64,000 nucleotides of DNA from Luteolibacter sp. SL250 (GTDB lineage Bacteria > Verrucomicrobiota > Verrucomicrobiia > Verrucomicrobiales > Akkermansiaceae), in NCBI RefSeq assembly GCF_026625605.1, contig NZ_CP113054.1, forward strand, positions 1,922,001 to 1,986,000, given 5' to 3'. This document shows, piece after piece, positions 34,490 to 38,858 of this stretch (its first letter is position 1; the number at the start of each line of letters is the position of its first letter). The notes below the pieces were generated by a model. The model had not been told where the DNA came from and did no database searches. It saw only the letters and a program-made list of their open reading frames with translations. A program made the translations under genes and the position numbers.

Positions 34490-35584
34490 ATGCCGCAAGC
34501 CGATCCCACCGATGACCTGAAGAAGTCCCTTTCCGAACGGATTCTCGTGCTGGACGGGGCGATGGGAACCACCATCCGCACCTACGGACTTCAGGAAAAA
34601 GACGCACGCGGGGAGCGGTTCGCCGATACCGATAAGGATCTGCTGAACAACGGCGACATCCTTTCCATCACCCGGCCGGACGTCATCGGGGACATCCACA
34701 AAAGGTTCTACGAGGCGGGTTCCCACATCTGCGAGACCAACACCTTCTCCGCCACCAGCATCGCCCAGAGTGAGTTCTTCGTCGAGGACCCGCGGGAACA
34801 CGGCGGGCGGAAGGATCCGGAATTCTTCCAGAAAATCCTGGAGAACCCGTTCCTGAAAGACTTGGCGTGGGAGCTGAACTACGAATCCTCCCGGCTGTGC
34901 CGGAAATGGGCGGACAACATCGGCAGCGACACCGGCATCCGCCGCTATGTGGCCGGCGCCATCGGGCCGCTCACCGTTTCCCTCACCAACGGCCCGGACG
35001 CGAACGATCCCGCCTTCCGCGTGGTCACTTTCGACCAGGTGCTGGAAGACTACAAACATCAGGTGCGCGCGCTCATCGATGGCGGCTGCGACATCCTGAT
35101 GGTGGAGACCATTTTCGACTCGCTCAACGCAAAGGCCGCCGTCGTCGCCATCCGCGAGGTGTATGACGAGATGAAGCGCCGCCTGCCGGTCATCGTCTCC
35201 GCCGCCGTCGGCCGCGGTGGTGAAACCATGATCTCCGCGCAGAAGGTGGAGGCGCTGTGGAATGCCTTCGCCCACATCGACCCGCTCGCCATCGGCCTGA
35301 ACTGCTCCCTCGGCCCGGACCTGATGAAGCCGTTCCTGGAGGAACTCTCCGCCTGTGCCGCCACCCACGTCTCCTGCTACCCGAACGCCGGTCTGCCAAA
35401 CCCTCTGGCCCCGACCGGCTTCGATCTCGAGCCGCCGCACATGCACGACTACATGGCCGAGTTCGCCCAGGCGGGCCTGCTCAACCTCGCCGGAGGATGC
35501 TGCGGCAACACCCCGGAGCACGTCGCCGCCATCGCACAGGCCGTCGCCAAATATGCTCCGAGGCAGGTTCCTGTGATTGGTTGA
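34490..35584 (+). CDS. metH: Methionine synthase, N-terminal part (homocysteine S-methyltransferase domain)
   Basis: 364 aa covering only the Hcy-binding barrel of cobalamin-dependent MetH. Motifs: LVLDGAMGTTI, GSHICETNTFSATSIAQ, VAGAIGPLTVSLTN, DILMVETIFDSLNAKAA, GLNCSLGPD and GGCCGNTPEH; the Cys in GLNC and the CC pair are the zinc ligands. It ends abruptly with PRQVPVIG and a stop at the linker to the pterin domain. The remainder of MetH is the next gene on the strand at 36099, separated by a GxxExxY gene in inverted repeats. The protein may still be active as two chains, since Hcy domains fold alone. Start at 34490 (MPQADPTDDLKKS). Confidence 0.93.
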   Translation: MPQADPTDDLKKSLSERILVLDGAMGTTIRTYGLQEKDARGERFADTDKDLLNNGDILSITRPDVIGDIHKRFYEAGSHICETNTFSATSIAQSEFFVEDPREHGGRKDPEFFQKILENPFLKDLAWELNYESSRLCRKWADNIGSDTGIRRYVAGAIGPLTVSLTNGPDANDPAFRVVTFDQVLEDYKHQVRALIDGGCDILMVETIFDSLNAKAAVVAIREVYDEMKRRLPVIVSAAVGRGGETMISAQKVEALWNAFAHIDPLAIGLNCSLGPDLMKPFLEELSACAATHVSCYPNAGLPNPLAPTGFDLEPPHMHDYMAEFAQAGLLNLAGGCCGNTPEHVAAIAQAVAKYAPRQVPVIG

Positions 35585-36091
35585 AACGAAACGCGGAGAC
35601 GCAAAGGTCGCGGAGAGAAGCGCAGAGTTTTCAAGAGGAGCTGATGAAATCGAAGGAGGAACTAAATGAGTTGTCCGGGATCATCGTGGATGCCGCCATG
35701 GAGGTTCATCGTGAATTCGGCCCTGGATTGCTCGAACGTGTCTACGAAGCGGCCCTCTCCGCCGAACTGTTGATGCGCGGCATTTCATCCGAGAGGCAGG
35801 TCCCGTTGCCGGTGGTCTACAAGGGCAACGTTCTGGATGACGAAGGCTACCGGATCGACCTGCTGGTGGAGGACTGCATTGTCGTGGAACTGAAAACCGT
35901 TTCCGGTCTCCTTCCCATTCACGAAGCCCAACTTTCGACCTACCTAAGGTTGGCTCGCAAAAACCTCGGACTCCTGATCAACTTCCATACGGTTCTCCTG
36001 AAGGACGGGATCAAACGCCGCGTCCACCAGTTTCCATCCATCTGAACTCCGCGCCTCTCTCCGCGACCTCTTCATCTCCGCGTTTCGTTTT
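35583..36091 (+). mobile_element. Inverted-repeat-bounded GxxExxY cassette inserted between metH halves
   Basis: Left arm 35583-35627 and right arm 36047-36091 are each 45 nt and are inverted repeats of one another with 39 matches of 45 (shared core ACGAAACGCGGAGA and AGGTCGCGGAGAGA). A single GxxExxY gene lies between them. The cassette occurs exactly between the homocysteine and pterin domains of metH. No clear direct repeat marks the insertion, apart from an ATT at each junction (35576-35578 and 36108-36110). The arms resemble the CGCGAAG/CGCAAAG tracts of other repeats here. Mobility is inferred, not shown. Confidence 0.6.
35644..36045 (+). CDS. GxxExxY protein (PD-(D/E)xK nuclease-like fold)
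   Basis: 133 aa. The signature [14 protein letters not shown] gives G28-x-x-E31-x-x-Y34. A nuclease-like core follows: [16 protein letters not shown] with Asp72, Glu82 and Lys84 in D-x9-E-x-K order. The C-terminal [20 protein letters not shown] and [13 protein letters not shown] complete the fold. Members of this family are short and their function is not established. It starts at 35644 just inside the left repeat arm with a GAGGAG purine-rich site upstream. It has no partner gene in the cassette. Confidence 0.85.
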
Positions 36092-36098
36092 ATCTTCC

Positions 36099-38858
36099 AT
36101 GAAAACCATTCCCCACGCTCTCCGCCTTTCCGGTACGGACGCCTACAACCACACCGCGGACAAGCGTTTCCTGATGATCGGGGAGCGTACGAACGTCGCC
36201 GGCTCCCCGCAGTTCGCGAAGTTGGTCCGTGCGGGGGACCTGGAGGCGGCGGTGGAGGTCGCCCGCCAGCAGGTGGAGAACGGCGCGAACGTGATCGACA
36301 TCTGCTTTGATGACGGCCTCATCGACGGCAAGGCGATGATGAGCCAGTTCCTGCGCCTGGTACAGGGGGAGCCGGATGTGGCGAAGGTGCCCATCATGGT
36401 GGATTCTTCGAAGTGGGAGATTTTGGAAGAGGGGCTGAAGTATCTGCAGGGCAAAGGGATCGTGAACTCCATTTCGCTGAAGGAAGGCGAGGAGATTTTC
36501 AAATCCCACGCCCGCCACATCATGAAATACGGCGCGGCGGTGGTGGTGATGGCCTTCGATGAAAAGGGTCAGGCCGCGACCTTTGAGGAGAAGATCCGCA
36601 TCTGCGAGCGCGCCTACCGCATCCTGGTGGATGAGGTCGGATTCAATCAGGACGACATCATCTTCGACCCGAACATCCTCACCGTCGCGACGGGCATCGA
36701 GGAGCACAACAACTACGCGCTGGACTTCATCAATGCCACGCGGTGGATCAAGGAGAACCTCCCTGGTGCGAAGGTGTCAGGCGGTGTCTCGAACATTTCT
36801 TTCTCCTTTCGCGGCAACAACGTCGTGCGGGAGGCGATGCACTCCGCCTTCCTCTACCACGCGGGCAAGGCGGGCATGGACATGGGCATCGTCAACGCCG
36901 GCATGCTGGAGGTCTATGACGAGATCCCGAAGAACCTGCTGGAGGCGGTGGAAGACGTGCTGCTGAACCGCCGCGAAGATGCGACGGAACGCCTGCTGGA
37001 CCTGGCGGAGAGCTTCAAAGGCAAGGGCGGCAAGAAGGTGGAGGAGGATCTTTCCTGGCGGAATGAGTCCGTGGAGAAGCGGCTGGAGTACGCGCTGCTG
37101 AAAGGCATCGACAAGTTCATCGACGAGGACACGGAGGAGGCCCGCGTGAAATACGTGCGCCCGCTCAAGGTCATCGAGGGACCGCTGATGGATGGCATGG
37201 GTGTGGTGGGCGACCTCTTCGGCGCGGGGAAAATGTTCCTGCCGCAGGTGGTGAAGTCCGCGCGCGTGATGAAAAAGTCCGTCGCCTGGCTGACGCCCTT
37301 CATGGAGGCGGACAAGGCCGCGAACCTTGCGGGCGACATCGAGGCGCTGCGGAAGGGAGATCCATCGCTCACCTACGAGGAAGCACTGGTGAAGGCGGAG
37401 CGCGGGCGTTCCGCCGGCCGTTTCCTCATCGCCACCGTGAAGGGGGACGTGCATGACATCGGCAAGAACATCGTCGGCGTGGTGCTGGCCTGCAACGGCT
37501 TCGAGGTCACGGACATGGGAGTGATGGTTTCCTGCGACAAGATCCTGGCGAAGGCGAAGGAGATCGGTGCGGACGTCATCGGCCTTTCCGGCCTCATCAC
37601 GCCATCGCTGGATGAGATGGTCCACGTGGCGAAGGAGATGGAGAAGGGGGGCATGAAGCTGCCGCTGCTCATCGGCGGTGCGACCACCTCGTCCGCGCAC
37701 ACTTCCATCAAGATCGCGCCGCACTACTCCGGTGCTGTGGTGCACGTGCTGGACGCGTCCCGCTCCGTGCCGGTGACGACGGCCCTCCTTTCCGCGGACC
37801 AGCGTGATGCCTTCGTGGCCGAGAACCTGGCGAAGCAGGAGAAGCAACGTGCTGCCTTCCTGGGCGGACCGAAGAAAGCGACCATCAGTCTGGACGAAGC
37901 GCGTGCCGCCGGACCGAAACTGGATTGGGACGGCTACACGCCGCCCGTGCCGTCCTTCACCGGGGTGCGGGTGTTGGATGACCAGTCCTTCGCGGAGCTG
38001 GCGGAATACATCGACTGGACGCCGTTCTTCCACGCTTGGGAACTTCGCGGCGTATGGGACCGTGAGAAGAAGGTGCTGAAGACGCGCAACGAGGAAGGCG
38101 CTGCGGAAGCGGCCAAGCTCCACCTGGATGCGCTCGGCTGGATCGAGCGCATCATTGCGGAGAAGCGTTTCACCGCCCGCGGCATGTATGGATTTTTCCC
38201 CGCCAATTCGGATGGGGACGACGTCATCGTCTGGACGGACGAAACGCGCACTGCGGAAAAGGCCCGTTTCCACACCCTGCGCCAGCAGCTCAAGAAAGAC
38301 TCCGGCAAGCCGAACGCCGCGCTCGCGGACTGGGTGGCTCCCTGCAAGGGGAATGACCACATCGGGGGCTTCGTCGTCGGGATCCATGGAGCGGATGAAT
38401 TCGCGTCCGAGCTGGAGAAGGCGCACGATCCATATGGTTCGATCATGGTGAAGGCCATCGCCGATCGTTTCGCGGAGGCCTTCGCGGAGCTGCTGCACCA
38501 CCGTGCGCGGATCGAGTGGGGCTACGAAACGGAGATGGAACTGACGAAGGATCAGCTCATCCATGAGAACTACCAGGGCATCCGTCCCGCGCCGGGCTAT
38601 CCAGCTCAGCCGGACCACACGGAGAAGCCCATCCTTTTCGACCTGCTGGGAGCGACTGCCGCGACCGGCGTCGAACTCACGGAAAGCTGCGCCATGCACC
38701 CCGGTGCCGCAGTCTGTGGTCTCTACTTCTCCCACCCGGAGAGCCACTACTTCGCCATCTCGGAGATCCAGAAAGACCAGATCGAGGACTACGCCGCGCG
38801 CAAGGGCATGACCGTGGAGGAAGTGGAGAAATGGCTCGGGCCGTGGCTTGGATACTAA
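36099..38858 (+). CDS. metH: Methionine synthase, C-terminal part (pterin, B12 and activation domains)
   Basis: 919 aa. Pterin-binding domain (residues ~1-310): [67 protein letters not shown]. Cap and B12 domain (~320-580): [21 protein letters not shown] with the cobalt-coordinating His at ~452, then [14 protein letters not shown]. Activation (SAM-binding) domain (~590-919): [55 protein letters not shown]. It begins [19 protein letters not shown], which is exactly the linker where the N-terminal piece stops. Thus all MetH modules exist but on two polypeptides. The start has no clear Shine-Dalgarno sequence and is 7 bp past the repeat arm. Confidence 0.95.

What the first reader, a model, noticed from the sequence alone, without database searches (positions are those of the whole stretch)
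34490..38858. Methionine synthase split by an inverted-repeat-bounded GxxExxY cassette exactly at a domain linker
Seen: the Hcy domain (34490-35584) stops at PRQVPVIG, and the pterin/B12/activation part (36099-38858) restarts at [12 protein letters not shown]. Together they read like a continuous MetH linker (P-V-I | I-P-H-A-L-R-L-S-G) with no residue lost. Between them is a GxxExxY gene inside 45-bp arms (39/45 identical). An ATT flanks both junctions. Inference: a small mobile cassette inserted in the one place that leaves two foldable proteins. A GxxExxY protein as the sole gene of an inverted-repeat cassette would be a new type of minimal element; alternatively, metH was already split.
Basis: partly seen in the sequence, partly recalled or inferred. 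Interest (0 to 1): 0.8.

Follow-up and report, generated by a model that had tools for sequence, protein, structure and literature searches.

The report
Nuclease cassette splitting methionine synthase gene
A tiny DNA cassette with a single nuclease-like gene between mirror-image repeats sits in the middle of a bacterium's methionine synthase gene, cutting it into two genes, and it belongs to a widespread and apparently undescribed family of such cassettes in bacteria and archaea.

Summary
In detail: Hcy gene, stop overlapping the left arm, GxxExxY gene, 46-nt arms (89% complementary), second metH gene. Relatives give the history: metH is split here in 21 of 21 same-genus genomes with a readable junction and fused in 14 of 14 genomes from other families of the order. 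A GxxExxY gene, intact or damaged, lies between the halves in 16 of the 21; three of the other five keep a relic. So the insertion probably lies on the genus stem, and losses did not re-fuse the gene. The cassette is one of a class: 85 of 94 GxxExxY genes in the genus lie between inverted arms (shuffled 0 of 94); in a wider, capped scan 52 of 74 do, in 12 phyla (control genes 0 of 180). Arms are tandem units of 8-10 nt that differ between elements but match within one. The protein is mostly under purifying selection and its fold is nearest a Cas4/RecB-type nuclease. Arm-only palindromes are scattered in the genome. Against active transposition: no clear target-site duplication, no recent jump seen. 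No paper found describes it.

The parts
34490..35584 (+). metH part 1: homocysteine-binding (Hcy) domain gene; the stop TGA overlaps the first base of the left arm
   Evidence: PF02574 248.7 bits; ORF
35584..35629 (+). left inverted-repeat arm, tandem units of about 9 nt (CGCGGAG / CGCAAAG / CGCGGAG / CGCAGAG)
   Evidence: class-wide period 8-10 nt
35644..36045 (+). GxxExxY protein, PD-(D/E)XK family, 133 aa
   Evidence: TIGR04256 138.5 bits; PF13366 134.5 bits; model pLDDT 95
36045..36090 (-). right inverted-repeat arm
36099..38858 (+). metH part 2: pterin-binding, cap, B12-binding and activation domains
   Evidence: PF00809, PF02607, PF02310, PF02965; NF007024 1390 bits from model position 339

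Best explanation
This is a member of a class of minimal, nuclease-only selfish elements. One small PD-(D/E)XK gene (fold nearest Cas4/RecB-type nucleases) sits between two inverted arms of three to four tandem units of 8-10 nt. SHOWN by sequence: the architecture; that it lies in a gene that is one ORF in other families; that cassette and split are shared across the genus; purifying selection on the protein in most pairs tested; that the two arms of one element match while arms at the same site in other species diverge; that arm type goes with protein relatedness; that arm-only palindromes are scattered in the genome. SUPPORTED, NOT PROVEN: occasional relocation of gene plus arms between sites (pheS|pheT and metH). 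INFERRED: the protein is an active nuclease that acts on its own arms as DNA (bound units or an extruded cruciform), which homogenises them and, rarely, copies the element or an arm-only derivative elsewhere. Survivors sit mainly in operon junctions, co-directional with the host genes, the outer arm next to the upstream stop codon. At metH the hit fell in the inter-domain linker; the halves are made as two proteins that still form a methionine synthase, so the cassette was tolerated.
For: Split 21 of 21 in the genus, fused 14 of 14 outside. GxxExxY between the halves in 16 of the 21: 14 open, G016 with an internal deletion, G014 frameshifted; relics in L039 (arms and gene 3' end), L050 (TGAAGCGAAACG) and L062 (right arm). 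Arms: genus 85 of 94, shuffled 0 of 94, mismatched flanks 21 of 275; wider scan 52 of 74, control genes 0 of 180, mismatched 25 of 289. Concerted arms: for same-locus-group pairs at 70-80% protein identity, within-element arm match exceeds between-species match in 101 of 106. Arm similarity follows protein similarity at different loci, r 0.29, highest of 1000 permutations 0.09. Relocation: metH C-type plus pheS|pheT copies are one clade (98/92), single origin of all metH copies rejected at AU p 0.022; sites checked. dN/dS 0.03-0.11 in 7 of 8 pairs with a value. Arm-only palindromes. Both neighbours co-directional in 80 of 117. Fold: SSO0001, Z 9.5. No PF01717 (MetE) match in 12 of 16 genus genomes, so split MetH is probably used.
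Against: Direct repeats at element edges are near chance: 4 nt or more 14.5% vs 12.7%; only 4 of 117 reach 6 nt (3.4% vs 1.2%). No near-identical pair of full elements at two sites of one genome stands out in the 94-row tree. On that tree a single origin of all metH copies was not rejected (AU p 0.33). Most copies sit at a few conserved sites, as a domesticated gene would. 22 of 74 and 9 of 94 genes fall below the arm threshold. At protein identity above 90% arms of sister species match each other about as well as arms within an element (6 of 11 pairs within higher). B-type arms also occur in genomes without a B-type gene (15 of 58). One pair has dN/dS 0.48. The window's own genome has MetE, so its split metH might be dispensable there. 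No biochemistry.
Confidence: 0.6

Rival explanations
1. RNA-level cassette like a 23S rRNA intervening sequence: the arms pair in the mRNA, RNase III cuts the stem, and the GxxExxY segment is removed from the metH, pheST or nuo message; the arms are kept for RNA structure.
For: The arms pair in the folded transcript (z -5.0); cassettes lie mostly between co-directional genes; the same arm layout surrounds S23p-like four-helix-bundle genes (TIGR02436) in this genus, 28 of the 30 examined; the Coxiella IVS with an S23p ORF has a 28-bp terminal stem cut by RNase III (PMC4990558, passages).
Against: Mismatched arm pairs show no G-U excess on the sense strand: 128 G-U against 207 A-C type in the genus, 103 against 106 in the wider set (genus counts are not independent). 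RNA pairing does not explain tandem units or single arm copies dispersed elsewhere.
Confidence: 0.2
2. metH was split first by an ordinary mutation and the cassette later entered the ready-made intergenic gap, as at pheS|pheT or nuoK|nuoL.
For: Other cassettes examined lie between separate genes; three genus genomes with C-type cassettes (L044, L069, L086) suggest later refilling of the site; L166 shows a split with no visible relic.
Against: None of 14 genomes outside the genus has the split and three of five cassette-free genus genomes keep relics. In 5 of 13 B-type metH cassettes (L043, L046, L098, L103, L114) the stop TGA of the Hcy gene lies inside the left arm with a TGA at its place in the right arm, so the element could have brought the stop; in the other 8, the window's included, it lies outside or at the edge.
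Confidence: 0.2
3. The arms are mobilised in trans by RAYT (HUH) transposases, and GxxExxY is only a passenger.
For: The own genome has 4 Y1_Tnp matches, 3 over the cut-off; RAYT-like domains are common in the genus, even inside MetH; other inverted-repeat families fill the window; the same arm layout surrounds a different gene family.
Against: Arm type follows GxxExxY protein relatedness at different loci, and GxxExxY genes have arms in 12 phyla. Flanks of RAYT genes were not tested.
Confidence: 0.15

Closest known systems
REPIN-RAYT systems (REP-associated tyrosine transposase)
   Same: One nuclease-type gene, palindromic repeats beside it and solo copies elsewhere, chromosomal and mainly vertical; RAYTs are vertically inherited and duplicate REPINs (PMC8049555, passages). 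The window's GxxExxY protein finds no match in 50,697 phage records and 8 of 72,556 plasmid records (E 1e-5).
   Different: PD-(D/E)XK instead of HUH protein; arms are long inverted blocks of tandem units that differ from element to element; genes lie in operon junctions, up to 8 copies per genome, where that paper calls RAYTs single-copy.
23S rRNA intervening sequences with S23p (four-helix bundle) ORF
   Same: A single small ORF bounded by inverted repeats, no transposase, called a selfish element, host product left in two pieces (PMC4990558, passages).
   Different: Host is protein-coding, the ORF is of a nuclease family, no G-U signature of RNA selection; no Rfam match at 34000-39500.
MITEs and insertion sequences
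   Same: Terminal inverted repeats; arm-only copies.
   Different: No transposase, no clear target-site duplication, arm sequence not conserved between elements.
Split MetH of Phaeobacter inhibens
   Same: Methionine synthase working as separate polypeptides (PMC5764234, passages).
   Different: There three genes; here two neighbouring genes separated by a cassette.

Membership tests
GxxExxY protein family (TIGR04256 / PF13366 PDDEXK_3) | score above curated cut-off | tested here: met
   138.5 bits vs 35; 134.5 vs 22
GxxExxY protein family (TIGR04256 / PF13366 PDDEXK_3) | conserved GxxE, D, (D/E)xK and Q..Y residues | tested here: met
   G28, E31, Y34, D72, K84 invariant and H93, Q96, Y100 at 90% or more over 82 sequences; the acidic residue two before K84 is not listed at 90% (D in L003). 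That these form the active site is inferred
Cas4/RecB-type nuclease | same fold | tested here: inconclusive
   SSO0001 (4ic1) Z 9.5, next rows 7.9 and below, restriction enzymes and Hjc among them; no Foldseek hit at E 0.001; weak Cas4 HMM E 0.029
Insertion sequence or MITE | terminal inverted repeats | tested here: met
Insertion sequence or MITE | target-site duplication | tested here: not met
   direct repeats of 4 nt or more at element edges 14.5% vs 12.7% in mismatched pairs, n 117; 6 nt or more 3.4% vs 1.2%
Insertion sequence or MITE | transposase gene inside the element | tested here: not met
   The cassette's gene is GxxExxY; other frames in it were listed but not searched
REPIN-RAYT | HUH/Y1 transposase | tested here: not met
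   GxxExxY protein matches only PF13366 and TIGR04256 at E 0.001
rRNA intervening sequence | located in 23S rRNA with S23p ORF | tested here: not met
   metH host; no Rfam match; ORF is PF13366
rRNA intervening sequence | stem cut by RNase III | not testable with these tools
   needs RNA
B12-dependent methionine synthase (MetH) | Hcy, pterin, B12 and activation domains all present | tested here: met
   on two neighbouring genes
Intein or self-splicing intron | open frame through the insert, or intron RNA | tested here: not met
   Stop directly after the Hcy part, no Rfam hit

The most novel reading that the evidence does not exclude
GxxExxY cassettes are a separate, ancient kind of mobile element found across bacteria and archaea: a lone PD-(D/E)XK nuclease that recognises its own arms mainly by their being self-complementary tandem-unit arms rather than by a fixed sequence, rewrites both arms in concert, seeds arm-only palindromes around the genome, and on occasion breaks a core enzyme gene into two at a domain boundary.
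Probability: 0.35. Interest if true: 0.92.

Novelty: new variant of a known kind. Interest (0 to 1): 0.75.

Why it matters
GxxExxY genes are annotated in many genomes with no function. This places them in an element with defined ends, gives the presumed nuclease a testable substrate (its own arms), offers an origin for a set of unexplained intergenic palindromes, and supplies a natural case of an insertion turning one multidomain enzyme into two genes. Arms that keep matching each other while their sequence drifts pose a concrete puzzle: gene conversion, selection for binding, or copying of one arm from the other.

Tried and rejected
Target-site duplication: near chance. RNA-stem selection by G-U excess: not seen, the genus shows the reverse. 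The flanking ATT: inside codons, not at the arm ends. Single origin of all metH cassettes: not rejected on the 94-row quick tree (AU p 0.33; that tree's free search was itself 16 log units below a tree holding the A and B copies together), rejected on the 52-row careful tree (p 0.022); the second set was chosen after the first was seen. Phage or plasmid carriage: none and 8 records, with the window's protein as the only query. Defence system: only a weak Cas4 hit. PHROGs: one weak match of unknown function. Solved relatives by sequence: none at E 1. Papers: GxxExxY (2 papers, listing only), 'GxxExxY protein', PDDEXK_3, six arm strings, methionine synthase with RAYT, repeats/nuclease/Verrucomicrobia terms: nothing describing these elements; most subscription papers and all bioRxiv preprints are missing from that library. 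Rows dropped: one search kept 94 of 105 unique genes (both flanks, near full length); one search returned the best 80 of 562 confirmed matches of a capped scan; one search kept 74 genes from those loci, two of which (L171, L172) look like contigs of this genus; searches used 117 elements with close arms, many of them orthologues; one search used 71 of the 94; one search used 131 arms; one search used the 30 TIGR02436 loci fetched, the best of a long list.
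Full report
OBSERVATION. The layout is as described. The Hcy gene stops at 35582-35584 (TGA), whose last base is the first base of a 46-nt arm (35584-35629); a 133-aa GxxExxY gene follows (35644-36045); the right arm is 36045-36090, 89% complementary to the left; the second metH gene starts at 36099. The families are certain. Together the two genes carry all MetH domains.

HISTORY OF THE SPLIT. I searched relatives with the second half and read the junctions. Of 21 same-genus genomes with a readable junction (own genome included), 21 are split; of 14 genomes from other families of the order, 14 are fused in frame. 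Four further genus genomes were not scorable: G002 and G012 are cut by contig ends, G024 has no match and G023 only distant ones. A GxxExxY gene lies between the halves in 16 of the 21: 14 open, one with an internal deletion (L038, G016), one frameshifted (L162, G014). Of the five without it, L039 keeps both arms and the 3' end of the gene, L050 keeps TGAAGCGAAACG, the outer end of the B-type arm, and L062 keeps a right arm; L055 has at most TGAAACG and L166 nothing clear. The simplest reading is one insertion on the genus stem, then losses that did not restore the fusion. In five of the 13 B-type metH cassettes (L043, L046, L098, L103, L114; the first two nearly identical) the Hcy stop TGA lies inside the left arm with a TGA at its place in the right arm, so the element may have supplied it; in the other eight it lies outside or at the edge. 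Of 16 genus genomes searched, 12 have no PF01717 (MetE-type) match, 3 have full-length MetE, the window's own among them, and G001 has a weaker one; some of the 12 are incomplete, but the split enzyme is probably the working methionine synthase in most. Split MetH works elsewhere (PMC5764234, passages read).

A CLASS OF ELEMENTS. The own genome holds three GxxExxY genes. The other two have quite different arms (CGGATT type, GCGAATGG type) but the same plan; they lie at nuoK|nuoL and carA|purA. Gene names at these sites are my reading of translated flanks, with homology checks for pheS, pheT, nuoK and nuoL among the loci but no family search. In the genus 63 of 73 genomes have the gene, up to 8 copies. 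Of 94 genes with both flanks, 85 have flanking inverted repeats at score 16 or more, against 0 of 94 with shuffled flanks and 21 of 275 with flanks of different elements. A genome-collection scan, capped, gave 80 loci; 52 of 74 genes with both flanks pass, in 12 phylum labels including archaea, against 0 of 180 control genes of the same loci and 25 of 289 mismatched pairs; two of the 52 (L171, L172) look like contigs of this genus. The mismatched passes show that arms share a general grammar. Arms have a period of 8-10 nt (best lag 9 in 63, 8 in 37, 10 in 16 of 128; maximum autocorrelation above 0.6 in 31 of 128, shuffled 0).

CONCERTED ARMS. At one locus the arms differ between species but match within each element. 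Mean within-element score stays at 27-30 while between-species left-left/right-right scores fall from 32 (protein identity above 90%) to 7 (30-50%). Within exceeds between in 6 of 11 pairs above 90% identity, 20 of 27 at 80-90%, 101 of 106 at 70-80% and 90 of 91 at 60-70%. Elements under score 16 or with distant arms were left out (71 of 94 used), which favours the result; one locus group joins pheS|pheT with nuoK|nuoL, so the low-identity pairs are partly of different sites. Synonymous divergence is 0.49 or more, or saturated, in 8 of 10 pairs tested, so unconstrained arms should have decayed. At different loci arm similarity follows protein similarity (r 0.29, largest of 1000 permutations 0.09).

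MOVEMENT. The metH copies form types A (16), B (13) and C (3). A and B lie on one side of a branch against C and the pheS|pheT copies (99/97; three long-branched copies from other sites, L120, L121 and L123, fall beside A). The three C copies (L044, L069, L086) cluster with the 13 copies at pheS|pheT (98/92; sites verified), and their arms are of the CGCCAAG type common there. Single origin of all metH copies is rejected in the careful 52-row tree (AU p 0.022) but not in the quick 94-row tree (p 0.33). So relocation of gene plus arms is likely but not proven. Arm-only palindromes of the window's type occur at six further places in the own genome as inverted pairs, and singly elsewhere. The exact B-type pattern occurs in 27 of 73 genomes, the reversed control pattern in none; by my own assignment of genomes 12 of 15 with a B-type gene and 15 of 58 others have it (Fisher p 0.0002; matches in the cassette's own arms are counted). 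The CGCCAAG pattern occurs in 60 of 73, up to 66 times in one genome, its reversed control once each in ten genomes, the window's own among them, where the pattern too occurs only once.

WHERE THEY SIT. Of 117 elements with close arms, many orthologous, 80 have both neighbouring ORFs on the same strand; the upstream stop lies at the outer edge of the left arm (median -3 nt, n 93; neighbours were chosen by ORF length, a rough method). Largest site groups in the genus: metH 32, pheS|pheT 13, another site 10, nuoK|nuoL 8. Target-site duplication: near chance.

THE PROTEIN. dN/dS 0.03-0.11 in seven of eight pairs with a value (ten tried), 0.48 in one close pair. AlphaFold model pLDDT 95; best chain SSO0001 at Z 9.5, the rest below 8; that SSO0001 is a Cas4 protein is my recollection. 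No relative among solved structures by sequence. The window's protein finds nothing in 50,697 phage records and 8 of 72,556 plasmid records.

MECHANISM. The best reading is a nuclease-only element acting on its own arms as DNA. Selection at the RNA level is not supported by a G-U excess, although the transcript does fold. A structure-specific nuclease on the cruciform of the arms would explain why arms need only match each other; tandem units argue for some sequence recognition as well. Both steps are inference.

WIDER LINK. Genes of the TIGR02436 four-helix-bundle family in the same genus have the same kind of arms with other units, 28 of the 30 examined, mismatched flanks 16 of 175; in Coxiella an S23p ORF lies in an IVS bounded by inverted repeats (PMC4990558, passages); that TIGR02436 and S23p are one kind of protein is my recollection. 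This suggests one arm-making process serving two unrelated proteins, or two convergent element families.

VERDICT. Real and well placed; a member of a broad, apparently undescribed class that works most like REPIN-RAYT or IVS elements without belonging to either. Mobility today is unproven. The genus is not named by the tools; contigs of equal length to two of its genomes' contigs are titled Akkermansia sp. MAG and uncultured Verrucomicrobia (L170, L171), which places it in Verrucomicrobiota.

Noticed in passing
L043, L045, L046, L048-L052, L164/L165, L167 (same genus); L054, L169 (other families); MetH second half, aa about 750: MetH of ten same-genus genomes and two outside it carries a domain of about 200 aa inside the activation domain, resembling REP-associated tyrosine transposases (PF01797 over cut-off in three tested; NF047646 74 bits, just under its cut-off of 80, in two tested; PNHVH motif and open frame in the seven translated). 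The window's MetH lacks it.
   Followed up: partly
L157, L153, L154, L156 (shortened in L155); between pterin and cap/B12 domains: MetH of four genomes, one in the genus and three outside it, carries an in-frame zeta-toxin-like P-loop domain of about 300-420 aa between the pterin and B12 parts (PF06414 in the three tested).
   Followed up: partly
L254-L283: TIGR02436 four-helix-bundle genes in the genus also lie between inverted arms of tandem units, 28 of 30 at score 16 or more (mismatched flanks 16 of 175).
   Followed up: partly
38861-38899 / 39018-39056: A gene-less inverted repeat of GAACATCGAACGTCCAACATTGAACG type starts 3 nt after the metH stop: another arm family, again right behind a stop codon.
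   Followed up: no
859-1186, 11016-11310, 49274-49473: Inverted repeats of a GCCGGAGGACAGGAGTG-like family, dispersed in the window.
   Followed up: no
52815-53072: Cluster of GGTAGCGAAGCTCGTGAGAGCTTCGGC-type inverted repeats.
   Followed up: no
L006, about 1445467-1445755 of the own genome: A CGCGGAG-type palindrome with a CGGATT-type palindrome inside it, as if one arm-only element had entered another.
   Followed up: no
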